The notes under the pieces are model-generated. The model had not been told where the DNA came from, searched no databases, and worked only from the letters and a program-made list of their open reading frames with translations. A program made the position numbers and the translations under genes. From an uncultured Bacteroidales bacterium (GTDB taxonomy: Bacteria > Bacteroidota > Bacteroidia > Bacteroidales > Paludibacteraceae): a DNA stretch of 52,469 nucleotides. Location: assembly GCA_900321005.1 (NCBI GenBank), contig ONUF01000023.1, positions 1-52,469 of the forward strand, given 5' to 3'. Position 1 is the stretch's first letter, and each line of letters begins with the position of its first letter. Shown here one piece after another: positions 25,255 through 38,495 of the stretch.

Positions 25255-27030
25255 ATGTGTTTTTTTCGTAAAACAGTTGTGGTAGAAGGACAGGAACGTC
25301 CTCGCCGCAAAGTAGGCTGCCTCGGCGGCTGCCTGATTTTCCTGGCTGTGTATTTCCTCTGCAGCGCCCTCCTCGGATGGATCATGGGAGATGTATTCTC
25401 CTCGTCGAATGTCAAACTGGAGGACAAGACCATCTATCGTTTGGAGATGAAGGGTACGCTCGTGGAGCAGGCCAAAGAAGAGAGTCCGTTCGCATCGCTG
25501 ATGAGTTCCGTGCCTTACAGCAGTTATGCCGGCAAGGGCGAGACGGTCGGCTTGGACGAGATCCTGAGTAATATTCGTCTGGCGAAGAACGATGATAAGA
25601 TCCTCGGTATATGGGTGGACGGCGCCGAGCTGGAGACGGCTCCGGCGAATGCGAAAGCGATTCGCGATGCGTTGCTCGACTTCAAGCAGAGCGGTAAATG
25701 GGTCATCGCTTCAGCGAAGAACTTCGGTCAGACCAATTATTACATCGCTTCTGTTGCCGACCGTATATGTCTGGACCCGACGGGGGCCGTGGACTGGAAC
25801 GGTCTCTCGGCTACGAAGATGTACTTCACCCGCGTGATGGAGAAAATCGGCGTCGAGATGCAGATCCTCAAAGTGGGCACCTTCAAGTCGGCTGTAGAAC
25901 CGTATTTCCGCACCTCGATGTCGGATGCCGACCGCTTGCAGACAGAGCAATACCTCAGCGGTATTTGGAACGAGTACAAGTCCGCTGTCTCGGCTGCCCG
26001 TCATATTGACGAGGCGCAGTTGGATGCGCTCGCTGACCGCGTCATGGGGCTGCAGTCGGCCGAAGAGAACCTCGCGGCAGGTCTCGTGGACACCATCGTC
26101 TATGCCCAGGATATGGACTCGCTGCTGCGCGTCTATGCCGGCACGAAGGACTATCATCTGCTCTCCACTGCGAAGATGGCGAAGGTAAAACGTCCGGAGT
26201 CGAAGGCGAAAGACAAAGTAGCAGTGCTCTATCTCGAAGGGGAGATCACCGATGAGACAGGCGACGGTATTGTCGGCAAGGATGTCGTAAAGACCCTCAA
26301 GAAGATCCGCAAGCAAGATGATATCAAAGCCCTCGTGCTGCGCGTCAACAGCCCGGGCGGTTCGGCCAACGCCAGCGAAGTGATCTGGCATGCCGTGCAG
26401 AACATCAAGGCGGATAGTATTCCGGTTGTTGTCTCCATGGGCGACTATGCCGCTTCGGGTGGCTATTACATCTCCTGCGGCGCGGATTATATCTTTGCTG
26501 AACCGACCACGCTCACCGGTTCGATTGGTATCTTTGGTACTATCCCGAACGTGTCCAAACTGCGCAATAAAGTGGGTCTGGACATCGACGGCGTCAGCAC
26601 CAACAAACACTCGGATATGGGAACCAACATGATCTACAAAGGCATGAATGCCGAAGAGCACGCGATCATGCAGACGATGATTGAGCGCGGCTATGACCTG
26701 TTCACCAGCCGTTGTGCGCAAGGCCGTCATGTAGAGCAGGCGTATATCAAATCCATCGGCGAAGGCCGTGTTTGGTTGGGCGACAAAGGTAAAGAGATTG
26801 GTATCGTCGATGAACTCGGTAATATCGATGACGCCATCGCGAAAGCCGTAGAACTTGCCGGACTGGAGTCCTATCAACTGACGTACTTCCCGGAGAAAGA
26901 AGATCCGTACGAGGAGTTGCTCAAGATGCTCGATAACACCACGGAAGAGGAACGCCTCATCATGAAAGTCCGCGACTTCTGCTCCAAACCGCGTATCATG
27001 GCCCTCATGCCGGAAGTGACGATCCAATAA
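25255..27030 (+). CDS. sppA: Signal peptide peptidase SppA (67K type)
   Basis: 591 residues. An N-terminal helix (about 22-45) anchors it in the inner membrane. The two tandem ClpP-like domains of the long form are present. The catalytic Lys is in VGTFKSAVEPYFR (about residue 210) and the catalytic Ser in GDYAASGGYYISCGADYIFA (about 400), followed by TTLTGSIGIFG. It degrades signal peptides left in the membrane. A heptamer array separates it from lpxK. Confidence 0.94.
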   Translation: MCFFRKTVVVEGQERPRRKVGCLGGCLIFLAVYFLCSALLGWIMGDVFSSSNVKLEDKTIYRLEMKGTLVEQAKEESPFASLMSSVPYSSYAGKGETVGLDEILSNIRLAKNDDKILGIWVDGAELETAPANAKAIRDALLDFKQSGKWVIASAKNFGQTNYYIASVADRICLDPTGAVDWNGLSATKMYFTRVMEKIGVEMQILKVGTFKSAVEPYFRTSMSDADRLQTEQYLSGIWNEYKSAVSAARHIDEAQLDALADRVMGLQSAEENLAAGLVDTIVYAQDMDSLLRVYAGTKDYHLLSTAKMAKVKRPESKAKDKVAVLYLEGEITDETGDGIVGKDVVKTLKKIRKQDDIKALVLRVNSPGGSANASEVIWHAVQNIKADSIPVVVSMGDYAASGGYYISCGADYIFAEPTTLTGSIGIFGTIPNVSKLRNKVGLDIDGVSTNKHSDMGTNMIYKGMNAEEHAIMQTMIERGYDLFTSRCAQGRHVEQAYIKSIGEGRVWLGDKGKEIGIVDELGNIDDAIAKAVELAGLESYQLTYFPEKEDPYEELLKMLDNTTEEERLIMKVRDFCSKPRIMALMPEVTIQ

Positions 27031-27053
27031 ATCATCAATCATCAATCACCAAT
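27030..27053. repeat. Heptamer repeat AATCATC between sppA and lpxK
   Basis: AATCATC, AATCATC, AATCACC, AAT fill nearly all of the 26-nt gap between the two genes. Confidence 0.85.
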
Positions 27054-27056
27054 ACG

Positions 27057-28067
27057 ATGTATCACATCGTCTCCATCCCGCTCAGTGGACTCTACACTTT
27101 TGGTGTAGCCATCCGCCATGTGCTGTTTGACCAGCGTCTGTTACCCTCGTTTAGCGTCGATGTGCCGACGATAGGCGTGGGTAACCTGGCGGTGGGCGGC
27201 ACGGGCAAGACGCCGATGGTGGAGTACCTGCTGCGACTGCTCTTGGACAACGGCTATCGGCCGGCGGTCCTCTCGCGCGGGTACAAGCGCAAGACGCACG
27301 GTTTCCGTTTGGCTGACAGTGAGTCCACCGTAGAGACTATCGGAGACGAGGCGATGCAACTGCATCGGAAGTTCCCGGAGGTACCCGTGGCGGTGTGCGA
27401 GAACCGCGTGCGCGGTGTCAAGCAACTGCAGCGCCAACTGACGAAGCTCGATGTGGTGGTGCTCGACGATGCGATGCAGCACCGCGCCTTGCGCTGCGGC
27501 TTCACCATCCTCCTCACGCCTTACGACCACCTCTATATCGATGATCATATGTTGCCGTGGGGCACGCTGCGCGACCTGCCGAGCAGGGCGTTGACGGCCG
27601 ACGCGGTGGTGGTGACCAAGTGCCCGGACAGCATTCGCCCGATAGACATGCGCGTGGTCGATAACCGTCTCCACCTGCCTACGTTCCAGCAACTGCATTT
27701 CACGGGATTGAGCTACGCGCCGATGGAGCAGGAGGGTACGCCCCTCGTGCTGTGCGGCATCGCCCGACCGAAGTATATGATGCGATATGTGAGCAAGCAC
27801 TATCCGAAGGCTGAACTGATGGCTTATCCGGATCATCATCATTACACGCCGGCGGACATCGACGCTATCATGCAGCGCGCCGCGGATTTCGACTTTGTCC
27901 TCACGACGGAGAAAGATATCCAGCGCCTGCGTACTACGTCCCTGGTGGACCGCCTGCAGGCGCAGAACAAGCGTCTCATCGCTCTGCCGGTGAGCGTGCG
28001 GTTCTGCACTCCCAAAGAACTTTTTGACCGACAAATACTGACGTATGTGCGGGAAAATAAAAAATGA
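27057..28067 (+). CDS. lpxK: Tetraacyldisaccharide 4'-kinase
   Basis: 336 residues. VPTIGVGNLAVGGTGKTPMVEYL (about residues 37-59) is the P-loop, followed by PAVLSRGYKRKTHGF and VVLDDAMQHRAL (the DDxxQH motif). It phosphorylates the lipid A precursor, so the organism makes lipid A. The stop overlaps the next start (ATGA). Confidence 0.95.
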   Translation: MYHIVSIPLSGLYTFGVAIRHVLFDQRLLPSFSVDVPTIGVGNLAVGGTGKTPMVEYLLRLLLDNGYRPAVLSRGYKRKTHGFRLADSESTVETIGDEAMQLHRKFPEVPVAVCENRVRGVKQLQRQLTKLDVVVLDDAMQHRALRCGFTILLTPYDHLYIDDHMLPWGTLRDLPSRALTADAVVVTKCPDSIRPIDMRVVDNRLHLPTFQQLHFTGLSYAPMEQEGTPLVLCGIARPKYMMRYVSKHYPKAELMAYPDHHHYTPADIDAIMQRAADFDFVLTTEKDIQRLRTTSLVDRLQAQNKRLIALPVSVRFCTPKELFDRQILTYVRENKK

Positions 28068-29950
28068 CCAATGGTACATGGTACATGGTAAATGGTAAAT
28101 TAATACATATCCTTCGTCGTTTCGTGCCGCCGTATCGCGCGCAGTTGGGGTGGAATATCTTCTTCAACCTCCTCTCGACGATCCTGTCGCTCTTCTCCTT
28201 CGCGGCGATCATCCCGGTGCTGCGCATCCTCTTCGGACTCAACAGCCTCGAGGTGACGCGTATCCCGCTGGAGGAGGTACACGGACTGCAAGAGACCATC
28301 GCCGCCCTGCGCACGAACCTCTACTGCGTGCTCAACGAACAGATCGCGCTGCATGGCGCCGGGTATGTGTTGCTGCTCTTGGGGCTTTTCCTTATCGTGA
28401 TGACGGGACTCAAAGTGCTCACGGCGTGGCTGGCGAACTATTTCATGGTGCCTATCCGCACGGGTGTGTTACGCGACTTGCGCAAACAGCTCTACGACAA
28501 GATCCTCTCGCTGCCTATGGGCTATTTCACCCAGGCGCGGCGGGGCGATATTATCTCGCGTATGACGAACGACGTGAACGAAGTGGAAGCGTCCATCATG
28601 TCGGCCCTCGACATCCTGTTCAAGGACCCCATCATGATTCTCGTCTATCTCATCACACTCTTCGTCATCTCGTGGCAACTGACGCTCTTCGTGTTGCTGC
28701 TCATGCCCGTTGCTATCTTCCTCATCGGCCGTATCGGACGCAGCCTCAAGCGGGCGTCGAAACGCGGACAGGAGCAGAACGCCGAGATCCTCTCGTCCAT
28801 CGACGAGACGTTGTTGGGACTGCGCGTGGTCAAAGGATTTAATGCCCAGAATAAACTGCGGGCGCGTTTTGAGGCGCTCATTAATGCGACTCGCGCAACC
28901 TTCAATCGCATCAATCGGCGCTATTACATGGCGCACCCGCTCTCGGAATTCCTCGGCACGATACTCATCGCCGTCATCCTTTGGTTCGGCGGACTGCTGA
29001 TACTTGCCGACCATGCGACCATTGACGCAGCGACGTTCATCTACTACCTCGTCATCTTTTATTCGATCATCAATCCTTCGAAAGACCTCAGCAAAGCGGC
29101 GTATGGCATTCGTCGCGGCATGGCCTCGCTCGAACGCATCGATACGGTTCTTAATACGGAGTCGAATATCCTTGAACCCGCGCAAGCGCTGCCGGTACAT
29201 TTCGAGAAAGAGATTGTCTTCGACCATGTGTCTTTTGCGTACCAACCGGAACGCGAAGTGTTAACAGATATCTGTCTGACGGTGCCCAAAGGCAAGACTG
29301 TCGCGCTGGTAGGGCAGTCGGGTAGTGGTAAGACCACCCTCACGGACCTCCTGCCGCGCTTCTATGATCCGACCTCAGGCTTTATCTCTATCGATGGCAC
29401 CGATGTCCGATGCCATACGACGCACGACTTGCGCGATTTCATGGGTATCGTATGCCAGGAACCCATCCTGTTCAACGACACGGTACTCAATAACATCACC
29501 TTCGGCGTCGATACGTCCCAAACTGCGCCGAACGGACTGACTTGGCGCGAAGCGGCCGAACAGGCTGCGCGTATTGCCAATGCCCATACTTTCATCGCCG
29601 CTATGCCGGAAGGGTATGACACCGTCATTGGTGACCGCGGATCGCGTCTCTCCGGAGGACAGCGCCAGCGCCTCTCTATCGCGCGGGCCATCCTCAAGAA
29701 CCCACCCATCCTCATCCTCGATGAAGCGACCTCGGCACTTGACAGCGAGTCCGAACGACTGGTGCAGGAAGCCCTTGAGCACCTCATGCGCGACCGTACG
29801 ACCCTCGTCGTAGCGCACCGCCTGTCCACTATCCGCCATGCCGATCTCATCTGCGTGATGCACGAAGGACAAATCGTCGAGCGTGGCACACACAACGAAC
29901 TCTACGCCCTCGGCGGCTATTATACCAAACTCGTTGATATGCAGGCCTAA
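28064..29950 (+). CDS. msbA: ABC exporter of the MsbA type (permease plus ATPase)
   Basis: 628 residues. Six membrane helices lie in about residues 20-330, with FTQARRGDIISRMTNDVNEVE as the conserved intracellular loop. The ATPase domain has Walker A GQSGSGKTTL (about 418), signature RLSGGQRQRLS (about 527), Walker B ILILDEATSALD (about 548) and VVAHRLSTIRHAD. Position after lpxK suggests lipid A flipping. The first residues (MTNGTWYMVNGKLIHI) come from a heptamer repeat, so the natural start could be this ATG, which overlaps the lpxK stop, or the one at MVNGK. Confidence 0.88.
   Translation: MTNGTWYMVNGKLIHILRRFVPPYRAQLGWNIFFNLLSTILSLFSFAAIIPVLRILFGLNSLEVTRIPLEEVHGLQETIAALRTNLYCVLNEQIALHGAGYVLLLLGLFLIVMTGLKVLTAWLANYFMVPIRTGVLRDLRKQLYDKILSLPMGYFTQARRGDIISRMTNDVNEVEASIMSALDILFKDPIMILVYLITLFVISWQLTLFVLLLMPVAIFLIGRIGRSLKRASKRGQEQNAEILSSIDETLLGLRVVKGFNAQNKLRARFEALINATRATFNRINRRYYMAHPLSEFLGTILIAVILWFGGLLILADHATIDAATFIYYLVIFYSIINPSKDLSKAAYGIRRGMASLERIDTVLNTESNILEPAQALPVHFEKEIVFDHVSFAYQPEREVLTDICLTVPKGKTVALVGQSGSGKTTLTDLLPRFYDPTSGFISIDGTDVRCHTTHDLRDFMGIVCQEPILFNDTVLNNITFGVDTSQTAPNGLTWREAAEQAARIANAHTFIAAMPEGYDTVIGDRGSRLSGGQRQRLSIARAILKNPPILILDEATSALDSESERLVQEALEHLMRDRTTLVVAHRLSTIRHADLICVMHEGQIVERGTHNELYALGGYYTKLVDMQA
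28067..28101 (+). repeat. Heptamer repeat ATGGTAC at the lpxK/msbA junction
   Basis: ATGGTAC, ATGGTAC, ATGGTAA, ATGGTAA in tandem, translated as the N-terminus of the ABC exporter. Confidence 0.88.
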
Positions 29951-29979
29951 ACTGATTACTGATTACTGATTACTGAATG
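29951..29979. repeat. Heptamer repeat GATTACT between msbA and mnmA
   Basis: Three units of GATTACT plus a variant fill the 26-nt gap from the msbA stop to the mnmA start. Confidence 0.9.
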
Positions 29980-31071
29980 CTGAAAACTAGAGTACTCTTA
30001 GGAATGTCCGGTGGCATTGATTCCACCGTCAGCGCCATGCTTCTTTTGGAGCAAGGCTATGAGGTAGTAGGCGTCACTTTTCGTACATACGATAGCATCA
30101 AAGAGAGTTGTATCGCCAAAGAGAAAGGCTGCTGCACCATTGACTCCATCATGGAGGCGCGGCACAACGCGGAGAAAATGGGTTTTGAGCACCATATCGT
30201 GGACTTCCGAGAGACTTTCCGCCGGTGCGTGATTCAGAACTTCATCGACGAGTATATGGCGGGCCGCACGCCCAACCCTTGCGTGCTGTGCAACAGCCAT
30301 ATCAAGTGGGGCGAACTGATGCGCGTAGCGGATGAGTTGCATTGTGACTATATCGCCACCGGCCACTACGCCCGCATCGCCGAACGCGACGGACATGTGT
30401 TCCTGCGCACCGCCGCCGATACGCATAAAGACCAGACCTATTTCCTCTGGATGCTCACCGAAGAGCAACTGCGCCGAACGATTTTTCCGTTGGGCAACTA
30501 TACGAAAGAAGAAGTGCGGGAGATAGCGCGTCAGCACGGTTACGAGAAACTCGCCGTCAAGCGCGAGAGCCAGGAGATATGCTTCATCCCCGACGATGAC
30601 TACCGCGCTTTCCTGCGCGCGAACGTGCCCGACTATAAGGAGCGCGTGCGCGCGGGCGAATACATCGACAAAGACGGCAAGGTCTTAGGCCATCACGAAG
30701 GCTATGTCAACTACACCATCGGTCAACGCAAGGGACTTGGTATCGCCCTTGGTCAACCCGCCTATATTACGCATATCGACGCCGCCACCAACCGCATCAC
30801 CCTCGGCACCAACGATGACATGTACGCGACGGAACTCCGCTATAAATCAATCATCAATCATAAATCATCAATCTCCAATTCGCCCCTCACGGCGAAAATC
30901 CGCTACCGTTCGAAAGCCGTGCCCGTCAAAGAAATAAAATCAGCAATCACCAATGACCAATCACAAATAAGCTCGCTGATCTTCAGCGAGCCTATCTGGG
31001 GTATCACTCCCGGTCAGTCTGTCGTCCTCTATCAGGACGACCTCGTCATCGGGGGAGGAATAATAGTCTGA
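29977..31071 (+). CDS. mnmA: tRNA-specific 2-thiouridylase
   Basis: 364 residues. The PP-loop GMSGGIDSTVSAMLL lies at about 9-23, the first catalytic Cys in TPNPCVLCNSHIKWG (about 100) and the second in SQEICFIPDDDYRAF (about 200). YVNYTIGQRKGLGIALG and PAYITHIDAATNRI are typical. It makes 2-thiouridine at wobble position 34. The C-terminal beta domain contains two heptamer-encoded insertions (SIINHKSSISNS and KSAITNDQSQISS) flanking KIRYRSKAVPV. Confidence 0.94.
   Translation: MLKTRVLLGMSGGIDSTVSAMLLLEQGYEVVGVTFRTYDSIKESCIAKEKGCCTIDSIMEARHNAEKMGFEHHIVDFRETFRRCVIQNFIDEYMAGRTPNPCVLCNSHIKWGELMRVADELHCDYIATGHYARIAERDGHVFLRTAADTHKDQTYFLWMLTEEQLRRTIFPLGNYTKEEVREIARQHGYEKLAVKRESQEICFIPDDDYRAFLRANVPDYKERVRAGEYIDKDGKVLGHHEGYVNYTIGQRKGLGIALGQPAYITHIDAATNRITLGTNDDMYATELRYKSIINHKSSISNSPLTAKIRYRSKAVPVKEIKSAITNDQSQISSLIFSEPIWGITPGQSVVLYQDDLVIGGGIIV
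30843..30880 (+). repeat. Heptamer repeat inside mnmA, first array
   Basis: AATCAATCATCAATCATAAATCATCAATC-type units, translated as KSIINHKSSISN. Confidence 0.8.
30936..30970 (+). repeat. Heptamer repeat inside mnmA, second array
   Basis: AATCAGC, AATCACC, AATGACC, AATCACA, AATAAG in tandem, translated as KSAITNDQSQIS. Confidence 0.85.
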
Positions 31072-31090
31072 TTACTGACTACTGATCACT
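31068..31090. repeat. Heptamer repeat at the mnmA/rubrerythrin junction
   Basis: TGATTAC, TGACTAC, TGATCAC in tandem across the convergent gene ends; it supplies the mnmA stop. Confidence 0.8.
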
Positions 31091-31634
31091 TTCCGAAGTA
31101 ACGCTTGTACAATCCTTCGAAACCTTTGCCGTGGCGAGCTTCGTCGCGTGCCATCTCATGTACGGTGTCATGAATCGGGTCGAGGTTCAACTCTTTCGCA
31201 CGCTTAGCGATATTCAACTTGTCTTCGCATGCGCCGGACTCCGCTAACATGCGTTTCTCGAGGTTTGTCTTGGTATCCCATACAATCTCTCCGAGCAGTT
31301 CAGCGAAACGGGAAGCATGGTCAGCCTCTTCATAAGCGTAGCGGCGGAAAGCTTCAGCTACCTCAGGATAACCTTCGCGGTCAGCCTGACGAGCCATCGC
31401 CAGATATTGACCTACTTCGGTACATTCACCGATGAAGTGCGCACGCAGGCCTTCTGCGATGATCGGGTCCTTCTCGTCTTTTGCTACTCCCAAAATGTGC
31501 TCGCATGCGAAAGAGAGTTTGTCGTCGGATGCTACTTTCCATTCAACGATTTGCTTACATTGCGGACAACGCTCAGGTGCCTCTGTGCCCTCGTGAACAT
31601 AACCACAGATCGGGCAGATAAATTTCTTTACCAT
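31086..31634 (-). CDS. Reverse rubrerythrin
   Basis: 182 residues. An N-terminal rubredoxin-type Fe site (CPICGY and CPQC, Cys at about 7, 10, 23, 26) precedes a ferritin-like four-helix diiron domain with E-x-x-H pairs ([51 protein letters not shown]). This order, the reverse of classical rubrerythrin, is known from anaerobes and reduces hydrogen peroxide and oxygen. It implies an oxygen-sensitive life style. Transcribed toward mnmA (convergent). No clear promoter box was found upstream. Confidence 0.92.
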
Positions 31635-31670
31635 AAGATAAATAATTAAAAGGTTAATAAAAAGGGTTAT

Positions 31671-31708
31671 TATAAATTACAAATTTCAAATTACAAATCA
31701 CCAATAAG
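31671..31708. repeat. Heptamer repeat between the CotH-like and rubrerythrin genes
   Basis: AAATTAC, AAATTTC, AAATTAC, AAATCAC units. They run into the 3' end of the CotH-like gene and supply its stop codon and last residues (IGDL). Confidence 0.85.
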
Positions 31709-33454
31709 CGTCCCCGACGCTGTATAAGTTTTTCCGTTACGAATGATAACGAGTTGTCCGTCTTGAATACGCTTGATGCTCGTGTCGGAAAGGGGGCTTG
31801 CCGCCTGTTCTACATCGTAGGTGGCGGGACGTGTGCCCTCTCCCCACTGTTGATAGAGCCATTCTGTTCTCCAATTGAATTTGTTGACGAACTCGTTATG
31901 CTTGGCGGTCATGTTACTGTTGTCGCAATAATTGAGCGTACCGCCCCACTTGGCGGCATCGTTTTTCGCGCCTTGCTTAATCAGTGTGGCGAGTTTGTCC
32001 ATCGCCGTGAGAAAATCGCTTTGCTGGTCATGTCGGAACATATACCAGATCTCCCGCAGTCTGGCTTGGAACTGTGGCCATGTAGCCAGTTGGCCGATCC
32101 AGTATTGGGGGAAGGTAGGGGAGTCGTATATCCAGGTGTTCCAGCCGCGGTTGTATGCGTTGCCGAAGTCCCACACAGGACCGAAATACCATTTCTCGGA
32201 CATGCCGTTGCGGTCGCGCTCTTTATAGAGATAGCAACTGCCGTGATAACTCTCGCAATCTTCCATCAGTTCCTGCACAAGGTAGAATTTGACAGCCTCG
32301 TCCAGATCCATCATCTCCCATAAGGGGTAATCGGTGTTGCCCCAGATAGCCTCATTCAGACTATGGAGCTGGCTTTCGATATATGTACGTTGCGACGCGG
32401 AGAGCAGTTCGGGACTCTTCATGGTAAACCATACTTCCTGTGCGTTCTGCTCGAAGAGGGTCACGTTGCCTTCCTCTTCATAGTTGTCTATCTCCACTAA
32501 CCAACCGCCGCTGACGGAGTCGGTCGCATAATCCTCCTGCTCGGTGACGTTCACGCGATTGGAGCCTACGCGCACTTGCTCGGTGAGGAAATACAAACCG
32601 TAATATTCGCCGTTCATCACCAGTTCTACCGGTACGGCCTTTGGCGTCCATTTCAGCCCGAGGGCTTCGCTCAGTTGGTATCCTGCGTAGTTCTTGAGGA
32701 ATCCTAAGCAGTCATCCGCGTGAGCCATCAAGCACCAATGTTTATTGCTCGGCATGCCTAAGACAGCCTGCTTCTTGTCAAACTTGATGCGGTAGGGTTT
32801 CTTGTCAAAACCGGTCCACGTCCAGTTGCCGCGTCCTTTGAATTGTCCGGCAATAGGAGCTTCCGCCGAACCTAAGGCTTTATAATTTGTGCTGAGCGGG
32901 TCTATATAGAGACTGCCGGTGACGTATTCTTCTTTGCTGGTGATGGCGACATTACCGGTGGTGTTCAGATATACGACGGGTAGCGTGCCGGAGATAGAGG
33001 CGGTGCCGGGGGTGGTCTCCTGTTGCGATTCCCAATAACCCAATGACTGCCACGCACCTTGCGCCCAGTTATCGCCCGTCTGGGGTACGAAAATGTCTCC
33101 GGCATTCATCTGCGCCTCGGAGGTCGCGGTGCGGTTGTAATTCAAGGTGTGGCTCACGTACTCCTTGAAATCGCTGAACCGCTGGTCGTACGTACCGGCT
33201 TGGATATCTCCGCCCACGAACGTAAAGCGATAGATGTCATTGACGGCCTGAGCGATGGAGACCGCCCATTTCTGCCCGTCAAAACTCATATCCAACACAT
33301 GAGTCTCGGAGACATCGTCTCTGCCGTACACCATCTTGACGGTGGAATATCCGGTCTTAGAGTTGTCAAAATAGAGCGATCCCTGCGGAATCGTCATCGC
33401 CTGCATCCCTGCGCTCAGCAGGCAAACCCAAAGGAATACTATATACTTTTTCAT
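31691..33454 (-). CDS. CotH-family protein with T9SS-like C-terminal tail
   Basis: 587 residues from the ATG at 33454, chosen because it gives a signal peptide (MKKYIVFLWVCLLSAGMQA) and lies 25 nt after the promoter. Residues about 25-140 are a beta-rich segment. The CotH domain (about 180-500) shows GQFKGRGNWTWTGFDKKPYRI, LMAHADDCLGFLKNYAGYQL, VELVMNGEYYGLYFLTEQVRV, EIDNYEEEGN and WYFGPVWDFGNAYNRG. Most relatives have Asp after WDF; here it is Gly. CotH proteins are kinase-fold enzymes in spore formers; the Bacteroidetes ones are secreted and uncharacterised. The end (RIQDGQLVIIRNGKTYTASG) resembles a T9SS sorting tail. Confidence 0.88.
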   Translation of the reverse strand: MKKYIVFLWVCLLSAGMQAMTIPQGSLYFDNSKTGYSTVKMVYGRDDVSETHVLDMSFDGQKWAVSIAQAVNDIYRFTFVGGDIQAGTYDQRFSDFKEYVSHTLNYNRTATSEAQMNAGDIFVPQTGDNWAQGAWQSLGYWESQQETTPGTASISGTLPVVYLNTTGNVAITSKEEYVTGSLYIDPLSTNYKALGSAEAPIAGQFKGRGNWTWTGFDKKPYRIKFDKKQAVLGMPSNKHWCLMAHADDCLGFLKNYAGYQLSEALGLKWTPKAVPVELVMNGEYYGLYFLTEQVRVGSNRVNVTEQEDYATDSVSGGWLVEIDNYEEEGNVTLFEQNAQEVWFTMKSPELLSASQRTYIESQLHSLNEAIWGNTDYPLWEMMDLDEAVKFYLVQELMEDCESYHGSCYLYKERDRNGMSEKWYFGPVWDFGNAYNRGWNTWIYDSPTFPQYWIGQLATWPQFQARLREIWYMFRHDQQSDFLTAMDKLATLIKQGAKNDAAKWGGTLNYCDNSNMTAKHNEFVNKFNWRTEWLYQQWGEGTRPATYDVEQAASPLSDTSIKRIQDGQLVIIRNGKTYTASGTLIGDL

Positions 33455-33479
33455 ACTAACTTCTCCTTCATATCCGGTG

Positions 33480-33510
33480 CAAAGATAATATAAAAAAATG
33501 ATATACACAA
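33480..33510 (-). promoter_or_regulatory. Promoter of the CotH-like gene
   Basis: Minus strand: TTG (33510-33508), 20 nt, TATCTTTG (33487-33480). The right part matches the composite element (TGTATATCATTTTTTT) but the left arm of the palindrome is degenerate. Confidence 0.8.
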
Positions 33511-33610
33511 GGGCGTGCGCATTTTTCTTGATAATTTGTATGTACTTACTTGCGGAAATGTGTATTTTCTGACGCATTTTATGAAAAAAACAAAAATAAT
33601 TCAAGAAAAA

Positions 33611-33642
33611 TTTGTGTATTTCAAAAAAAAGCAGTACCTTTG
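33611..33642 (+). promoter_or_regulatory. Promoter of the rpmB operon
   Basis: TTTG (33611-33614), 20 nt ending in TC-A8-GCAG, TACCTTTG (33635-33642). The spacer is shared with the two tRNA promoters. Leader of about 60 nt. Confidence 0.88.
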
Positions 33643-33709
33643 CGCGATTTTTCGTGTAATTATGCGAAAAGTCCCCGAATTTGAACGAAAATATAAAATA
33701 TATACTACA

Positions 33710-33943
33710 ATGTCAAAGATTTGTCAAATTACAGGCAAGAAAGCCATGGTCGGCTGCAATGTCTCACACTCGAAGCGCCATACAAAGCGCAGTTTCGATG
33801 TGAACCTCTTCCGCCGCAAGTTCTACTGGGTAGAACAAGATGTATGGATCGAGCTGAACGTGAGTGCAGCAGGTCTGAGAACTATTAACAAGATCGGTCT
33901 CGACAACGCGCTGAAACAGGCTGCGGAGAAGGGCTATCTCTAA
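33710..33943 (+). CDS. rpmB: 50S ribosomal protein L28
   Basis: 77 residues from the ATG at 33710 ([32 protein letters not shown], in two parts, is the L28 N-terminus). [19 protein letters not shown] and [15 protein letters not shown] follow. An upstream open reading of 65 codons lies across the promoter and is not coding. First gene of the L28-L33-DUF4295 set. Confidence 0.96.
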
Positions 33944-33961
33944 AACGAAAGGAGCTAAACA

Positions 33962-34150
33962 ATGGCAAAGAAAACAAAAGAAGCACGCGTTCAGGTTATC
34001 CTCGAGTGCACGGAACAAAAGGCCAGCGGTGTTCCCGGAATGTCTCGTTACATCACCACCAAGAACCGCAAGAACACTCCGGATCGTTTGGAACTCATGA
34101 AGTACAATCCCTACTTGAAGAAATACACGCTTCATAAGGAGATTAAGTAA
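33962..34150 (+). CDS. rpmG: 50S ribosomal protein L33
   Basis: 62 residues. [12 protein letters not shown], then [20 protein letters not shown] and [16 protein letters not shown] are L33. The family's zinc cysteines are largely missing (one Cys remains), as in the zinc-free form. Begins 18 nt after rpmB. Confidence 0.96.
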
Positions 34151-34178
34151 TTAACCCTAATTAGAAAGGCTTAGAACT

Positions 34179-34304
34179 ATGGCAAAGAAAGCGGTCGCAA
34201 CACTGCAAACCGGTAACTCCGGACGCGCGTCGCCTAAAACGGGTGCTTACATCTTCCAAGAAGAGATCGTTCTGAACGAAAAGGTGAACGAGTTCTTTAA
34301 GTAA
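34179..34304 (+). CDS. DUF4295 protein, shortened
   Basis: 41 residues (MAKKAVATLQTGNSGRASPK, then TGAYIFQEEIVLNEKVNEFFK). This small basic protein regularly follows L33 in Bacteroidetes and may be a ribosome-associated factor. Relatives I recall are about 50 residues and have a segment like YSKVIKMVKS between GRA and SPKTGAY; it is missing here without a frame change. Begins 28 nt after rpmG. The usual downstream ftsY is absent. Confidence 0.85.
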   Translation: MAKKAVATLQTGNSGRASPKTGAYIFQEEIVLNEKVNEFFK

Positions 34305-34313
34305 CAAACCTAA

Positions 34314-34355
34314 CAATTAGCGCACTACATCTTTCGTGGTGCGCTAATTGTTTTC
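34314..34355 (+). terminator. Strong intrinsic terminator of the rpmB operon
   Basis: CAATTAGCGCAC pairs perfectly with GTGCGCTAATTG, with three further pairs inside and a 7-nt loop, followed by TTTTCT. Confidence 0.92.
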
Positions 34356-34358
34356 TAA

Positions 34359-34396
34359 CAACTGATCACTGAATACTGATCACTGAATACTGAATC
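34359..34396. repeat. Heptamer repeat before the lipid-kinase gene
   Basis: TGATCAC, TGAATAC, TGATCAC, TGAATAC, TGAATCC in tandem, ending 5 nt before the ATG at 34402. Confidence 0.9.
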
Positions 34397-34401
34397 CTAC
34401 C

Positions 34402-35325
34402 ATGCTGGGCATCATCATCAATCCGAAATCGGGCAAGAACTACTTCCGTGCGCAACGTATCTACCTTTGGCACCTGCTGCGTAAGCGCCATCTGCCCTTT
34501 GCGTATCGCGTGACCAAATACGCGGGCCATGCAATCGAGTTGGCGCGCGAACTGGTCGAGAAAGGATATGACGAGATTCTCATCCTCGGAGGAGACGGCA
34601 CGCTCTCCGAAGCCGTTAACGGCATCATGCGTTCTGTCCTCACTCCCGAGCAGAAAGCGAAGATCCAAGTCGGACTCATGCCGCGGGGAACGGGTAACGA
34701 CTGGGCGCGGTACTGGAACCTCACTAAGAACCATAAGGAATCCCTTCGTCGCTTCTTCGAGGGCGAAGGACATCCGATCGACATCGGTTGCCTCACCTAT
34801 TGGCGCAATAACATCGAGCACCACCGCTATTTCATCAACTCCGTCGGTTTCGGAGTCGATCCGCTGTGCTGCAAGAAAGCCGAGGCGCTCAAGTACTATA
34901 TCGGCTCGCATCACGTCAACTACCTCTTCGGACTCATCGGTGCTATCGTTCAGCATAAGGCGCAACATATGGTGCTGACCGTCGACGGCAAGGAAGCGGT
35001 CAATGACCGACTTTTCACGATGAATATCGGCAACGGACCGTTCTCCGGCGGAGGTATCCGGCAAAACCCCGAAGCTGATCCTACAGACGGTGTGTTCAAC
35101 TCGATGTTCATCTGCAAACCTACCTTCGGGCAGATCCTCAAAGCGATGCCGAAACTGTACAACGGCCGCCTGACCGAACTGCCCTTCGTCTATCCGATCG
35201 TAGGCCGCGAGATAGAGATCTCCTATCGCAAGCATATTCTCTTCGAGGCGGATGGTATTTTGGAGAACATCATTGGTCCGTGCAAGGTAACCTGCCTCCA
35301 CAACGCGTTGCAGTTCCGGTGCTAA
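34402..35325 (+). CDS. Diacylglycerol/sphingosine-kinase-like lipid kinase
   Basis: 307 residues. The catalytic domain has IIINPKSGKNYF at the start, ILILGGDGTLSEAVNGIM (about 69-86) and LMPRGTGNDWARYW (about 93-106), as in the DgkB/YegS/BmrU family. The second, beta-sandwich domain contains NIGNGPFSGGGI (about 210). These soluble kinases phosphorylate diacylglycerol or related lipids. No terminator is seen before the next gene; a heptamer array lies between. Confidence 0.9.
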   Translation: MLGIIINPKSGKNYFRAQRIYLWHLLRKRHLPFAYRVTKYAGHAIELARELVEKGYDEILILGGDGTLSEAVNGIMRSVLTPEQKAKIQVGLMPRGTGNDWARYWNLTKNHKESLRRFFEGEGHPIDIGCLTYWRNNIEHHRYFINSVGFGVDPLCCKKAEALKYYIGSHHVNYLFGLIGAIVQHKAQHMVLTVDGKEAVNDRLFTMNIGNGPFSGGGIRQNPEADPTDGVFNSMFICKPTFGQILKAMPKLYNGRLTELPFVYPIVGREIEISYRKHILFEADGILENIIGPCKVTCLHNALQFRC

Positions 35326-35327
35326 CA

Positions 35328-35366
35328 ACTGATCACTGATTACTGATTACTGATTACTGATTACTG
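35328..35366. repeat. Heptamer repeat GATTACT before the AmgK-like gene
   Basis: TGATCAC followed by four units TGATTAC fills the gap up to the ATG at 35367, whose A directly follows the array. Confidence 0.92.
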
Positions 35367-36287
35367 ATGGCTATCCAACAGCAGGGCTCCAATAGAATCT
35401 ATACCCGTGAGACGGACGCGAACGGTCGCACGTTCATTCGCGTGCAGGGAACGAACCGCGATGAGAACCGCGCGTTCATCTATATGGCGCGCCATTTTCA
35501 TGCGCTCGGCCTGCCTGTCCCCGAACTCTATTCGGTCAGCGACGATGAGATGAGTTATACCCAGGAGGACTTGGGGGACACCATCCTCTTCGACCATCTG
35601 GATAACTATACCTTATTGGAACGCACGATACGCGCGCTCGCGCATATACAGGTCACGGGCGCGCAGGACTTCGACTGGTCTGTGTGTTTCCCCGTACCCG
35701 CGATGGACGAACGCGCCATCCGCTGGGACCTCAACTATTTCAAGTACTGCTTCCTCAAAGGCACGAAGATCGAGTTCTCCGAACCCAAACTGGAAGATGA
35801 GTTCGATAAGTTGGTGAAGGTCATTTTGGAGCAACCGGCAGAGACTTTCCTCTACCGCGATTTCCAGAGCCGCAATGTGATGATCAAGGACGGGCAACCG
35901 TACTTCATCGATTTCCAAGGCGGTCGCCGCGGACCGACCCAGTACGACGTAGCCTCTTTCCTATGGCAAGCCAAAGCGAACTTCCCGCCCGAACTCCGCA
36001 ACAAACTGATTGATGTGTATCTGGATGAGTTGGAGAAAGTCATCAATTCATCATTCCATCAATCCATCAATAAAGCCGCTTGGCGTGCTGCTCTGCCCCA
36101 TTTCGTTCTCCTCCGCACCCTTCAGGTCCTCGGCGCTTACGGATACAGAGGCTATTTCGAGCGCAAACCGCATTTCCTCGAGTCCATACCCCTTGCGCTG
36201 AAGAACCTGCGCGAGGTACTCGAGCAACTCAAAGAAGAATATCCTTACCTATATGCTCTCAGTAACGATCTACTCGTTCTCCTTTAA
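35367..36287 (+). CDS. AmgK-like sugar kinase (aminoglycoside phosphotransferase fold)
   Basis: 306 residues. IYTRETDANGRTFIRVQGTN gives the glycine-poor N-lobe, YTQEDLGDTILFD (about 69-81) the hinge. TFLYRDFQSRNVMIKDG (about 160-176) is the Brenner-type catalytic loop with Tyr in place of His, and YFIDFQGGRRGPTQYDVAS the metal-binding Asp loop. This is the pattern of AmgK, the MurNAc/GlcNAc anomeric kinase that works with MurU. Often in Bacteroidetes this kinase is fused to a RapZ C-terminal domain; here that domain is the next gene, overlapping by 35 bp. A heptamer-encoded stretch (VINSSFHQSINKA) lies near residue 230. Confidence 0.82.
   Translation: MAIQQQGSNRIYTRETDANGRTFIRVQGTNRDENRAFIYMARHFHALGLPVPELYSVSDDEMSYTQEDLGDTILFDHLDNYTLLERTIRALAHIQVTGAQDFDWSVCFPVPAMDERAIRWDLNYFKYCFLKGTKIEFSEPKLEDEFDKLVKVILEQPAETFLYRDFQSRNVMIKDGQPYFIDFQGGRRGPTQYDVASFLWQAKANFPPELRNKLIDVYLDELEKVINSSFHQSINKAAWRAALPHFVLLRTLQVLGAYGYRGYFERKPHFLESIPLALKNLREVLEQLKEEYPYLYALSNDLLVLL
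36040..36073 (+). repeat. Imperfect heptamer repeat inside the AmgK-like gene
   Basis: CATCAAT/CATCATT/CCATCAA-type units, translated as INSSFHQSINK. Confidence 0.65.
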
Positions 36288-36654
36288 GAAGGGAACTCCT
36301 GAAGATACCTCCGGCAACGGAGGAGGTTATGTGTTCGACTGCCGGTCAACCCATAACCCGGGTAAGTACGAGCAGTACAAGTCCCTCACGGGCTTGGACC
36401 AACCCGTCATCGACTTCCTCGAATCGGACGGCGAGATACTCACCTTCCTCCGCTCCGTCTATGCCCTTATCGACCATCATGTGGAGCGGTTCATTGAGCG
36501 CGAATTCACCCACCTGCAGGTCGCTTTCGGTTGCACCGGCGGTCAGCACCGTTCGGTCTATTGTGCCGAGCACTTGGCCAAGCACCTCAAAGAGAAATAT
36601 AACGTCACCATTCATCTCATCCACCGCGAGCGCGGAATATCCCGTAAATGGTAA
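36253..36654 (+). CDS. Stand-alone RapZ C-terminal domain protein
   Basis: 133 residues. IYSFSFKKGTPEDTSGNGGG, FDCRSTHNPGKYEQYKSLTG, VIDFLE and the motif VAFGCTGGQHRSVYCAEHLA (about residues 90-109) match the C-terminal domain of RapZ. In E. coli that domain senses glucosamine-6-phosphate and binds the small RNAs that control GlmS. The N-terminal P-loop domain of RapZ is absent. Lying between the kinase and nucleotidyltransferase genes, it may sense an amino-sugar phosphate for this pathway. The last codons and stop (RKW-stop) are made by a heptamer array. Confidence 0.88.
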   Translation: MLSVTIYSFSFKKGTPEDTSGNGGGYVFDCRSTHNPGKYEQYKSLTGLDQPVIDFLESDGEILTFLRSVYALIDHHVERFIEREFTHLQVAFGCTGGQHRSVYCAEHLAKHLKEKYNVTIHLIHRERGISRKW

Positions 36655-36692
36655 ATGGTACATGGTAAATGATCAAATGGTACATGGTATGA
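36648..36692 (+). repeat. Heptamer repeat ATGGTAA/ATGGTAC at the rapZ-like/murU-like junction
   Basis: AAATGGT-type units run through the end of the RapZ-like gene, its stop codon, the gap, and the first codons of the next gene. Confidence 0.9.
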
Positions 36693-37489
36693 TCTTTTGT
36701 GCGGGTCTTGGCACGCGTCTCAAACCCCTCACGGACACGATGCCGAAAGCGCTGGTTCCGCTGGCGGGCAAACCCCTGCTGCAGTGGCAGGTGGAGAAAC
36801 TCCGTGACGCCGGCATCACCGATATCATCGTCAATGTCCATCATTTCCCCGACCAGATCATCGACGCCGTCCGCGCCAACAACGGCTGGGGCTGTAACAT
36901 CACTATCTCCGACGAACGCGACCAACTCCTCGACACTGGCGGAGGATTAAAGAAAGCCTTACACATTACACATTACACATCACACAATACACCAATATTG
37001 GCTTGCAACGTCGATATATTAAGCAACATCGACCTCCGCGCGCTGATAGAGTATTATCAATCACCAGAAACGAAGTTAATCGCGCCCTTGCGGCAGAGAA
37101 TCAGCAATCATCAATCACCAATGAGTCTTCTCGTTGTTTCGGAACGAGAGACTCAGCGCTATCTCTGCTTCGACGAGCAGGATACCCTTTGCGGTTGGAC
37201 GAATATCGCCACCGGCGAAGTGAAAGGCCGCGACGGTCGGCACTTAGCTTTCTCAGGATTGCAGATTCTCAGTCCGGAGGTTTTGGCGCTCTTAGCGCAG
37301 ATGCCCGAGGATAAATTCTCCCTCATCGATTTCTATCTGCAAATCATCAATCATCCATACGGCGACAGCAGATCGGAAGAATCAGCAATCAGCAATTTGA
37401 AAGCGTTCATACCGAACGCTTACAAGATGATGGATGTCGGCAAAATCGACCAGATTGCCGAAGCAGAAGCCTTCGCCGAGAGCTTATAA
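36689..37489 (+). CDS. MurU-like sugar-1-phosphate nucleotidyltransferase
   Basis: 266 residues from the ATG at 36689; ATGs at 36677 and 36662 lie in the repeat array and are possible. MIFCAGLGTRLKPLTDTMPK is the nucleotide-binding signature, LVPLAGKPLLQWQVEKL follows, then ACNVDILSNIDLRALI with the metal-binding Asp. MurU activates MurNAc-1-phosphate to UDP-MurNAc, bypassing part of peptidoglycan synthesis. Several insertions are translated heptamers (LHITHYTSHNTP, RISNHQSPMS, LQIINHPYG, SAISNL). The neighbours fit the kinase-uridylyltransferase pair. Confidence 0.85.
   Translation: MIFCAGLGTRLKPLTDTMPKALVPLAGKPLLQWQVEKLRDAGITDIIVNVHHFPDQIIDAVRANNGWGCNITISDERDQLLDTGGGLKKALHITHYTSHNTPILACNVDILSNIDLRALIEYYQSPETKLIAPLRQRISNHQSPMSLLVVSERETQRYLCFDEQDTLCGWTNIATGEVKGRDGRHLAFSGLQILSPEVLALLAQMPEDKFSLIDFYLQIINHPYGDSRSEESAISNLKAFIPNAYKMMDVGKIDQIAEAEAFAESL
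36960..36997 (+). repeat. Heptamer repeat ACACATT inside the murU-like gene
   Basis: ACACATT, ACACATT, ACACATC, ACACAAT, ACACCAAT in tandem, translated as HITHYTSHNTP. Confidence 0.88.
37098..37124 (+). repeat. Heptamer repeat AATCATC inside the murU-like gene
   Basis: AATCAGC, AATCATC, AATCACC, AATGAG, translated as ISNHQSPM. Shorter relatives occur at 37341-37354 and 37380-37395. Confidence 0.82.
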
Positions 37490-37720: not shown

Positions 37721-37756
37721 AAAAATGACGTGCGTACTTGTGTATGTCATTTTTTT
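37721..37756 (+). other. Palindromic composite element (copy B) before the ABC ATPase gene
   Basis: AAAATGACGTGCG and TGTATGTCATTTT pair (with G-U pairs) and are followed by T7, as in copy A. It lies between two promoters rather than after a gene on the same strand, so an operator role is at least as likely as termination. Confidence 0.65.
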
Positions 37757-37768: not shown

Positions 37769-37793
37769 CAGTCGCAAAGGTTTTTTCGACAAA

Positions 37794-38495
37794 ATGGTGC
37801 ATATTGAGCATATCAACAAGTCTTTTGGGTCGCAGCAAGTCCTGCGCGACGTCACGCTGTCCATTCCTGAAGGCCAAGTCCTCGGACTGCTCGGACCCAA
37901 CGGTGCCGGTAAGTCCACGCTGATGAAGATCCTCATCGGCCTCTGGCGCGCTGACAGCGGTTCCGTTGCCGTACCCGAACGCATCGGTTACCTCCCCGAG
38001 AACAACCCCCTCTACGACGAGATGTACGTCGCCGAGTACCTCGAGTTCATGGCGAAAATGACTCAATGTCCAAATAAATGGTACATGGTAAATGACCAAA
38101 TGGTAAATGACCTCATCGACCGCGTGGGTTTGACGCCGGAGCGCCACAAGCATATCCGCGAACTGAGTAAAGGCTACCGCCAGCGTGTTGGCCTCGCCCA
38201 GGCGCTCCTCGGCAATCCCCAACTGCTCATCCTTGATGAACCTACTACCGGCCTCGACCCCAACCAACTCGTTGAGATTAGGAGTTTGATAAAAAATCTC
38301 GCCCACGGCGAGCCTCTAAACCCTAATTCCCGAAACCCTAAACCCTTGACAATTATATTGTCCACCCACATCATGCAAGAGGTCAGTGCCATGTGCGACC
38401 GCGTTGTCATCTTGGACCACGGCGTCATCAAGGCCGACCAACCCATAAACGAAATAAACGACCTCGAGGAGTTATTTCATCGTGTAACAGTTTAG
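37794..38495 (+). CDS. ABC transporter ATP-binding protein (GldA-like)
   Basis: 233 residues from the ATG at 37794. HIEHINKSFGSQQVLRDVTL opens the domain; Walker A GPNGAGKSTLMK (about 36-47), signature ELSKGYRQRVGLAQALLG (about 121-138), Walker B LLILDEPTTGLDPNQ (about 143-157), and ILSTHIMQEVSAMCDRVVIL. It resembles the ATPase of gliding-associated and drug/copper exporters. No permease gene is next to it; ruvB follows. Two stretches are heptamer-encoded: QCPNKWYMVNDQMVNDLID (helical domain) and EPLNPNSRNPKPL before the switch region. Both are insertions relative to typical members, so activity may need testing. Confidence 0.88.
   Translation: MVHIEHINKSFGSQQVLRDVTLSIPEGQVLGLLGPNGAGKSTLMKILIGLWRADSGSVAVPERIGYLPENNPLYDEMYVAEYLEFMAKMTQCPNKWYMVNDQMVNDLIDRVGLTPERHKHIRELSKGYRQRVGLAQALLGNPQLLILDEPTTGLDPNQLVEIRSLIKNLAHGEPLNPNSRNPKPLTIILSTHIMQEVSAMCDRVVILDHGVIKADQPINEINDLEELFHRVTV
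38072..38112 (+). repeat. Heptamer repeat ATGGTAC/ATGGTAA inside the ABC ATPase gene
   Basis: Units AATGGTA, CATGGTA, AATGACC, AATGGTA, AATGACC in tandem, translated as NKWYMVNDQMVND. Confidence 0.85.
38316..38349 (+). repeat. Heptamer repeat TAAACCC inside the ABC ATPase gene
   Basis: TAAACCC, TAATTCCC, GAAACCC, TAAACCC, translated as LNPNSRNPKPL. The unit happens to equal the plant telomere repeat. Confidence 0.75.

What the first reader, a model, noticed from the sequence alone, without database searches (positions are those of the whole stretch)
27030..36692. Heptanucleotide tandem repeats occupy gene junctions throughout the window
At least seven gene gaps between 27.0 and 36.7 kb, plus the one at 51.57 kb, are filled by 3-5 tandem copies of a 7-nt unit. 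The unit differs from place to place (AATCATC, ATGGTAC, GATTACT, AAATTAC, TGATCAC/TGAATAC, TCCAATC), but the length of 7 is constant. They often supply a stop codon, a start region or the whole gap. Filamentous cyanobacteria have comparable short tandemly repeated repetitive (STRR) heptamers; I do not know of a description in Bacteroidales. Constant period with changing sequence suggests a generating process, not a shared regulatory site.
Basis: partly seen in the sequence, partly recalled or inferred. Interest (0 to 1): 0.82.

Follow-up and report, generated by a model that had tools for sequence, protein, structure and literature searches.

The report
Seven-base repeats filling operon gaps
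In a group of rumen bacteria, short stretches of DNA repeated every seven bases fill many gaps between neighbouring genes and some loops inside genes, and the repeated word changes from species to species while the step of seven stays, which points to a mutation process rather than a fixed regulatory signal.

Summary
In 340,096 bases of this genome, exact arrays number 38 at period 7 and at most 4 at any other period from 4 to 13. Of 72 arrays, 45 are intergenic or at gene edges though 90% of sequence is coding. Co-directional gaps of 20-49 bp hold an array in 21 of 38 cases here, 32 of 102 in relatives. At the sppA-lpxK junction 16 of 35 loci have an array, with 16 distinct heptamers. Close relatives differ mostly by whole arrays, sometimes by 7-nt steps.

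Best reading: a recurrent slippage-like mutation process with a 7-nt step, filtered by selection to operon gaps and tolerant protein loops. It belongs with known bacterial heptanucleotide repeats (cyanobacterial STRR; TAACTGA repeats, already reported in Paludibacter). New here: many units per genome, unit turnover at fixed orthologous junctions, in-frame arrays in core enzymes. The generator is unidentified; Pol I proofreading loss, MutS loss, reverse transcriptase and Y1 transposase do not track it.

The parts
19533..19565 (+). CAAATCA x4.7, in frame inside a DUF4886 gene (called 19033-19806)
   Evidence: TRF; Pfam DUF4886; L041 identical over 36 nt, L042 one substitution, different heptamers in L040, no array in L112, L177, L180, L183
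27030..27053 (+). AATCATC x3.4, fills the sppA-lpxK gap from the last base of the sppA stop to 3 nt before the lpxK start
   Evidence: this junction has arrays in 16 of 35 loci, 16 distinct consensus heptamers
28070..28100 (+). ATGGTAM x4.4, starts 2 nt after the lpxK stop (28067), inside the predicted first codons of the msbA-like gene (ORF start 28064)
   Evidence: junction arrays in 7 of 38 loci
29951..29983 (+). ACTGATT x3.7, fills the msbA-mnmA gap; the unit ACTGAATG supplies the mnmA ATG
   Evidence: orthologous gap holds other heptamers or none in other species
30846..30873 (+). ATCAATC x4, in frame inside mnmA
   Evidence: the orthologous loop holds other repeats or non-repeated sequence
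30938..30968 (+). AATCACC x4.4, in frame inside mnmA
31068..31089 (+). degenerate 3-unit ACTGATT-family stretch over the mnmA stop and the end of the convergent minus-strand ORF 31086-31634
   Evidence: read directly; not reported by TRF
31669..31698 (-). TTACAAA x4.3 between two minus-strand ORFs (31086-31634 and 31691-33577)
   Evidence: 5 of 8 loci have an array here, all with one heptamer, so this one is inherited
34361..34395 (+). ACTGATC/ACTGAAT alternating (period 14) upstream of the lipid-kinase-like gene 34402-35325
   Evidence: at this junction L039 and L040 (neighbours 96/97% identical, 91 and 91 nt) have units that differ at 2 of 7 positions
35328..35368 (+). ACTGATT x5.9, fills the gap between the lipid-kinase-like and AmgK-like genes
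   Evidence: L040, with neighbours 95/91% identical, has an anchor distance of -1 against 50 nt here
36041..36071 (+). CATCAATC x3.9 (period 8, not 7), in frame inside the AmgK-like gene
36644..36689 (+). GTAAATG/GTACATG x6.4 over the end of ORF 36253-36654 and the predicted start of the MurU-like gene (called 36662)
   Evidence: L041 has 42 against 49 nt, consistent with one unit fewer
36959..36992 (+). TTACACA x4.9, in frame in a MurU-like loop
   Evidence: the loop holds many different heptamers, or none, in orthologues
37099..37122 (+). AATCANC x3.4, in frame in the MurU-like gene
   Evidence: score 34, below the cut
37345..37396 (+). AATCATC/AATCAGC short stretches (TRF: 37380-37396), in frame in the MurU-like gene
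38075..38109 (+). TAAATGG x4.9, in frame in the called gene 37725-38495 (ABC ATPase by eye, not searched)
38316..38346 (+). CTAAACC x4.3, in frame in the same gene; one substitution from L041
51565..51596 (+). AATYTCC x4.6 from the last base of the 3257-aa ORF 41792-51565, also inside the called ORF 51537-51995
   Evidence: no orthologous comparison could be made

Best explanation
A recurrent mutation process with a strong 7-nt step, most likely slipped-strand duplication in replication or repair synthesis, keeps making short tandem arrays across the genomes of this Bacteroidales genus. Selection removes most of them. Survivors sit where length and sequence are free: spacers between co-directional genes, where the array often runs from the stop to the next start, and tolerant protein loops, where the unit must lack stops on the coding strand and the total must keep frame. 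Arrays then gain or lose units, decay, or vanish and are replaced by another unit, so position and period persist while the sequence turns over. Shown: period dominance, placement, turnover, some unit steps, local seeds. Inferred: that slippage is the birth mechanism; why 7; why certain units recur.
For: Period: own sample 38 exact arrays at p7 against at most 4 at other p4-13; 38 named relatives (750,653 b) 88 at p7, 18 at p11, 13 at p8. Placement: 45 of 72 own arrays intergenic or at edges with coding fraction 0.899; lag-7 identity 0.415 in 86 own co-directional gaps, other lags 1-13 at 0.25-0.30, 0.244 in 7 divergent gaps; clade A 0.389 in 231 co-directional and 0.250 in 34 divergent gaps. 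Stops: unit has a stop on the sense strand in 80 of 112 co-directional junction arrays but 17 of 88 internal genic ones. Turnover: 77 arrays in 267 observations over 11 orthologous junctions, 62 junction-by-heptamer combinations; the two junctions among small genes 33581-34304 have 0 of 34 (heterogeneity chi2 35.4, df 10, p=1.1e-4). Unit steps: at >=88% neighbour identity 8 of 29 distinct length differences are multiples of 7 (4.1 expected, one-sided p=0.046), with clean +7, -14 and -28 cases. Seeds: 13 of 19 array-less siblings with a gap of at least 7 nt hold a <=1-mismatch copy of the unit (4.9 expected; pairs not independent).
Against: Of 41 close junction pairs with an array, 28 are array-versus-none, and 9 siblings have gaps under 7 nt with no room for a seed; slippage alone does not make that in one step. 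At >=85% and >=80% identity the multiples-of-7 excess is gone (15 of 88, p=0.27; 41 of 320, p=0.80). Recurring units (identical-pair rate 0.023 against 0.003 for permuted letters) are not explained by slippage of random sequence; part of that is my sampling of ACTGATT-bearing stretches and shared ancestry. In one protein loop array-bearing members are shorter, not longer (median 14 against 18 aa, p=0.0007), and in MurU loop 1 equal (16 and 15). Convergent gaps of clade A also show a lag-7 excess (0.383, 25 gaps), so the preference for operon gaps is not exclusive.
Confidence: 0.6

Rival explanations
1. The arrays are functional spacers: A+T-rich unstructured linkers kept between operon genes to help termination, re-initiation or coupling of translation, with period 7 incidental.
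For: Arrays often run from stop to start (distances). Junction units carry stops on the sense strand in 80 of 112 against 44 of 112 on the antisense; A exceeds T on the sense strand in 75 of 111. Actual units fold less than permuted-letter units (-1.59 against -2.81 kcal/mol, n=112, p=7.6e-6). STRR in cyanobacteria have been suggested to confer translation coupling (PMC2670836, passage).
Against: Sister species do without: in 7 of the 9 junctions that ever carry an array the median gap without one is -4 to 14.5 nt. Start regions with arrays are not significantly less structured than those without (n=62 and 103, p=0.28). The stop asymmetry is partly built in, because a stop-free array is absorbed into the ORF call. 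Arrays inside genes are unexplained.
Confidence: 0.2
2. The arrays are dispersed by copying: existing arrays serve as templates (template switching, gene conversion or an element-encoded enzyme) and are pasted at new sites.
For: The same units recur at unrelated loci and across species (24 of 41 own units also in clade A). All-or-none difference dominates between close relatives (28 of 41), and 2 of 41 pairs have clearly different units at one junction. L039/L040 have the same total length and units differing at 2 of 7 positions between intact flanks, which could be a swap or divergence.
Against: Shared irregular stretches between arrays at different loci are no commoner than after shuffling unit order (4 against 1-6 in six shuffles; a weak test on short arrays). 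Reverse transcriptase (RVT_1) is not found in array-rich G050, G051, G019 and G006; Y1 transposase is not found in array-rich G050, G006, G015 and G021. These are draft genomes of 63-97% completeness, so absence is not proof.
Confidence: 0.15
3. Loss of Pol I proofreading drives array birth in this genus.
For: The window's PolA (775 aa) has no 3'-5' exonuclease domain in Pfam. Twenty-seven of 37 genus genomes have this short form. By eye no DxE exonuclease motif aligns in any of the 15 genus proteins examined, while outgroups G040, G055 and G059 keep DTETTG.
Against: G040 keeps the motif and is array-rich (1494 pattern hits). G044 (genus) and G032 (outgroup) lack it and have 1 and 0 hits. Within the genus the short form spans 6 to 791 hits and the longer form 1 to 616. 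Neither necessary nor sufficient.
Confidence: 0.05

Closest known systems
Heptanucleotide long simple sequence repeats (LSSR) of prokaryotes, Mrazek et al. 2007 (original not held; taken from passages of PMC4679880 and PMC4692102)
   Same: Period 7 is the most abundant class in most repeat-rich genomes, scattered over phyla, and attributed to polymerase slippage.
   Different: Here found in a rumen Bacteroidales genus, with many units per genome and orthologous junctions holding different units in sister species.
TAACTGA direct repeats, MacGregor 2015 (PMC4679880; abstract, sections 7, 12, 15 and passages read)
   Same: 7-nt tandem repeats, mostly directly upstream of starts or overlapping the upstream stop; stops in all frames in forward orientation; in-ORF copies in the open orientation; two sets in Paludibacter propionicigenes. 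In some Flavobacteriia other heptamer repeats stand beside them, and near relatives have shorter gaps without repeats.
   Different: [quoted passage not shown] here 72 arrays use 41 distinct units and 27 of 72 are genic. The commonest own unit, ACTGATT, is one base from a rotation of TAACTGA (its count is inflated by my sampling).
Cyanobacterial STRR (PMC2670836, one passage; a three-heptamer Calothrix report is cited in PMC4692102, passage)
   Same: 7-bp tandem units between genes of operons, function unknown.
   Different: Described for filamentous cyanobacteria with few units and, in the passage read, a hairpin ability; here 62% of junction units do not fold as repeats.
GGGAATC repeats of Xanthomonas and GGGGAYT repeats of Nostoc (PMC4692102, abstract and passages)
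   Same: Heptameric intergenic arrays; length and sequence vary between close relatives while the position between genes is mostly kept.
   Different: Those are G-rich and quadruplex-forming; these are A+T-rich (junction arrays GC 0.28, internal 0.37).

Membership tests
Bacterial heptanucleotide LSSR | Excess of period-7 tandem arrays over chance and over other periods | tested here: met
   38 at p7 against at most 4 at other p4-13; Markov null 0.2
Bacterial heptanucleotide LSSR | Arises by slippage (unit-step copy-number change) | tested here: inconclusive
   8 of 29 multiples of 7 at >=88% identity (p=0.046) but 15 of 88 at >=85% (p=0.27)
Cyanobacterial STRR | 7-bp units between operon genes | tested here: met
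Cyanobacterial STRR | Host is a (filamentous) cyanobacterium | tested here: not met
   Closest named relatives are Paludibacteraceae or uncultured Bacteroidales MAGs (one record is titled Ruminococcus); T9SS PorP/SprF gene in the window
Cyanobacterial STRR | Array able to form a hairpin | tested here: inconclusive
   62% of 112 junction units fold with MFE 0 as repeated units, the rest do fold
TAACTGA repeats | Unit TAACTGA | tested here: not met
   Not among the canonical units printed (40 of 41 own, 40 of 83 clade A); nearest printed own unit is ACTGATT, one base off a rotation
TAACTGA repeats | Forward orientation with stops towards a downstream start | tested here: met
   80 of 112 junction units carry a sense stop against 44 of 112 antisense; ORF-calling bias admitted
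Phase-variation contingency loci | Copy number switches expression within a population | not testable with these tools
   No read data or strain series; genomes held are one per species

The most novel reading that the evidence does not exclude
An unidentified, active writing process, for example self-templated filler synthesis at broken or gapped DNA with a fixed 7-nt realignment step (and a weaker 11-nt one), lays down whole arrays in one event and keeps overwriting the same operon gaps and protein loops with new heptamers as species diverge.
Probability: 0.15. Interest if true: 0.85.

Novelty: new variant of a known kind. Interest (0 to 1): 0.55.

Why it matters
Why seven-base repeats dominate among longer bacterial repeats is an open question raised in 2007 (Mrazek, as told in PMC4679880). 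This genus offers dozens of species with the same operons, in which one junction holds different heptamers or none, so birth, growth, decay and replacement of arrays can be followed and period can be separated from sequence. It also shows small junk-like arrays becoming translated loops of core enzymes (MnmA, MurU-like), and it warns annotators that many gene ends and starts here lie inside repeats.

Tried and rejected
Pol I proofreading loss as cause: by eye the exonuclease motif is gone in the 15 genus PolA proteins aligned, yet array load in the genus ranges from 1 to 791 pattern hits, and G040 has the motif with 1494. Mismatch-repair loss: MutS_V found in 60 of 61 genomes. Reverse transcriptase and Y1 transposase: 22 of 61 and 35 of 61 genomes, not found in several of the richest. 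Dispersal by copying: shared irregular stretches 4 against 1-6 in shuffles. Length-preserving replacement as a rule: MurU loop 1 fits, but over 11 loops arrays go with +3 aa on median (Wilcoxon p=0.041; single loops from -4 to +9), and one loop is 13 aa in 5 of 5 array-bearing members against 6 aa in 16 of 18 others. Exact 21-nt quantisation of in-gene arrays: not general (array length mod 3 is 33/23/32 for remainder 0/1/2). Selection for unstructured starts: p=0.28. The first gene caller found only 51% coding and its placement counts were discarded; one search replaced it, and only wrote the module. Mrazek 2007 was not held. Searches for print reports: (listings; two searches returned nothing), plus passages of the papers named; none describes genome-wide many-unit heptamer arrays in Bacteroidales in what I saw.

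Sampling limits: four of the twenty own-genome stretches (on C11, C16, C26, C34) lie where one search had shown ACTGATT arrays. Leaving them and the window out, 41 arrays remain in 210,620 bases (195 per Mb against 212 per Mb with them; my arithmetic). The own count of AATCAGT is inflated by that choice, and clade A counts by shared ancestry. A few unnamed loci may come from the same species as named ones; I removed only the pairs I recognised (L184 = L043 and L175 = L045; L174-L177 and L184).
Full report
Observation. It also shows arrays in the same region inside genes: DUF4886 gene, mnmA (two), MurU-like (three), and a gene that by eye is an ABC ATPase (two). One listed repeat inside the AmgK-like gene has period 8. 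The sequence shows arrays running from the stop of one gene to the start of the next, for example sppA TAA to lpxK ATG and msbA TAA to mnmA ATG. Three of the eight junction arrays (28070, 36644, 51565) fall inside the first codons of the called downstream ORF.

Origin. The window is contig C38 of a 2.12-Mb, 54-contig, 78%-complete genome. Its closest named relatives are Paludibacteraceae or uncultured Bacteroidales MAGs, many from rumen and gut of ruminants. Genes include T9SS PorP/SprF, polA, tamL, sppA, lpxK, an msbA-like gene (499 bits, cut-off 602) and mnmA.

More than chance. In 340,096 bases (window plus 20 stretches, 16% of the genome) exact runs of 11 or more matches number 38 at period 7; other periods from 4 to 13 give 0 to 4; period 14 gives 20 as a harmonic; Markov resampling gives 0.2. 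TRF at score 40 gives 62 at period 7, 24 at 14, 14 at 11 and 12 at 8. Of the 80 loci, the 38 nearest (MsbA at least 77% identical, one partial copy at 73%) give 88, 18 and 13 exact arrays at periods 7, 11 and 8; 13 more distant ones give 14 at 7 and 14 at 11; the 29 outermost give 10 at 7, seven of these in two loci, one of them a Paludibacter. The same kind of array recurs in MAGs of independent studies, so an assembly artefact is unlikely; raw reads were not available.

Placement. With a home-made gene caller (coding fraction 0.899), 72 arrays of TRF score 36 or more split into 29 intergenic, 16 edge and 27 genic; clade A gives 44, 43 and 87 of 174. Junctions with an array: 38 of 211 co-directional, 3 of 19 divergent, 0 of 22 convergent; in clade A 75 of 436, 5 of 70 and 8 of 72. 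So per junction the preference for co-directional pairs is modest, and in the own sample divergent pairs are about equal. Per gap base it is about 2-fold (own) and 7-fold (clade A) over divergent, and about 1.8-fold over convergent in clade A (my arithmetic). Of co-directional gaps of 20-49 bp, 21 of 38 own and 32 of 102 clade-A ones have an array. Lag-7 identity in own co-directional gaps is 0.415, other lags from 1 to 13 lie at 0.25-0.30, and 7 divergent gaps show 0.244. In clade A the values are 0.389 co-directional, 0.250 divergent and 0.383 convergent (25 gaps). Own co-directional gaps without a TRF array show no excess (0.289), so not every gap is repeat-built.

Orientation. In 112 co-directional junction arrays (own and clade A) the unit has a stop on the sense strand in 80 and on the antisense in 44; in 88 internal genic arrays the numbers are 17 and 59. 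The second is expected, because three or more 7-nt units pass through all frames. The first is partly an effect of ORF calling.

Lexicon. The 72 own arrays use 41 canonical heptamers; 174 clade-A arrays use 83; 24 are shared. Identical-pair frequency is 0.023 and 0.015 against 0.003 and 0.002 for permuted letters. The four own stretches that hold ACTGATT hits, and shared ancestry in clade A, inflate these. Units fold less than permuted ones, so a preference for non-folding units may explain part of the recurrence.

Evolution at fixed places. Over 11 orthologous co-directional junctions, 77 of 267 observations have an array, with 62 junction-by-heptamer combinations. sppA-lpxK has 16 arrays in 35 loci with 16 distinct consensus heptamers; msbA-mnmA 11 of 37 with 9; the two junctions among the small genes 33581-34304 (ribosomal proteins by eye) have 0 of 34; one junction (31691/31086) has 5 arrays of one heptamer in 8 loci, so some arrays are inherited (called starts that run into arrays lower some of these counts, as one search shows for msbA-mnmA). 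Among 351 close junction pairs (both neighbours at least 88% identical), 41 have an array: 28 array against none, 10 same unit, 1 near (two positions), 2 different. Length differences that are multiples of 7: 8 of 29 at 88%, 15 of 88 at 85%, 41 of 320 at 80%, so the unit step is visible only in the nearest relatives. Clean cases: L050/L057 gain exactly 7 nt at two junctions, L057/L058 differ by 7 and 28, L040/L041 by 14, window/L041 by 7 at 36644. Array-less siblings keep a near copy of the unit in 13 of 19 usable cases against 4.9 expected, but 9 others have no room for one. L039 and L040 have the same total length, 91 nt, and intact flanks upstream of the lipid kinase, with units that differ at two of seven positions; that may be a swap or divergence.

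Inside genes. In 11 variable protein regions with at least one array, array-bearing members are longer by a median of 3 aa (p=0.041) with single regions from -4 to +9. In one MurU-like region the array-less state is 6 aa in 16 of 18 and the array state 13 aa in 5 of 5, a gain of 21 nt or three units. In another gene (orthologue of window 21622-22377) array-bearing members are shorter (14 against 18 aa, p=0.0007), and in MurU loop 1 lengths do not differ. That loop holds TTACACA, AAAGGTG, TTACGGG, AAATCAT, AAAAATT and other units in different species, and non-repeated sequence in others.

Distribution. A spaced pattern (AAT every 7 nt, four times) gives 366 hits in the own genome against 76 for the reversed control. 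Among 37 genus genomes the hits run from 1 to 791. In a spread of 148 genomes of the order, 23 including the own one have at least 100 hits and at least three times the control (my hand count); two other genera of the family have 1 and 2. The pattern sees only AAT-bearing units. The trait is patchy, as reported for other bacteria.

Candidate causes. The window's PolA lacks the 3'-5' exonuclease domain. Short PolA occurs in 27 of 37 genus genomes, a longer form in 8, fragments in 2. By eye none of 15 genus proteins aligned shows the DxE motif that outgroups G040, G055 and G059 keep; outgroup G032 has lost it too. Because G040 is rich while G044 and G032 are poor, this does not decide the trait. 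MutS, RVT_1 and Y1_Tnp do not track it either, with the caution that these are draft genomes.

Prior art. MacGregor 2015 (PMC4679880; abstract, sections 7, 12, 15 and passages read) describes TAACTGA arrays at the same kind of positions, reports two sets in Paludibacter propionicigenes, notes other heptamer repeats beside them in Gramella, Aequorivita and Elizabethkingia with shorter repeat-less gaps in some near relatives, and cites Mrazek 2007 for heptanucleotides as the most abundant class with a slippage idea. Rehm 2015 (PMC4692102, abstract and passages) describes G-rich heptamers in Xanthomonas and Nostoc with length and sequence variation at kept positions. PMC2670836 (one passage) calls STRR usually 7-bp repeats of unknown function. 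The kind is therefore known. The genome-wide many-unit form in a Bacteroidales genus, with unit turnover over orthologous junctions and in-frame arrays in core enzymes, I did not find in print.

Judgement. The arrays are best seen as products of a 7-nt-step duplication process screened by selection. Period dominance, placement, turnover and some unit steps are shown; slippage as birth, the reason for 7 and the recurring units are inferred. Rivals are functional spacers (20%), dispersal by copying (15%) and Pol I proofreading loss (5%).

Noticed in passing
window 16719-19046: DNA polymerase I of 775 aa without a 3'-5' exonuclease domain; 27 of 37 genus genomes have this short form, and the 8 longer ones show no DxE motif by eye, while three of four outgroups keep it.
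   Followed up: partly
L072, L075-L080, L107, L114 (clade B loci); also L046, L050, L057, L058, L069: A secondary peak of tandem arrays at period 11, equal to period 7 in the more distant relatives (14 and 14 exact arrays).
   Followed up: no
window 41792-51565: A 3257-aa ORF with two laminin-G-like stretches (Pfam); no period-7 row lies inside it, only one at its very end.
   Followed up: no
L046, L050, L057, L058, L067 gaps shown: Similar hairpin-like stretches (TGACATAC...GTATGTCA, or TGACAC...GTGTCA, plus a T run) followed by a GTACCTTTGCA-like box between co-directional genes; by eye a terminator joined to a Bacteroidetes promoter.
   Followed up: no
L012, L044, L178 mnmA loop: The mnmA loop that holds heptamers in the window holds 16-nt repeats (TACAGCGCAGCGGTCT-like) in other genomes, so tolerant loops collect several repeat kinds.
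   Followed up: no
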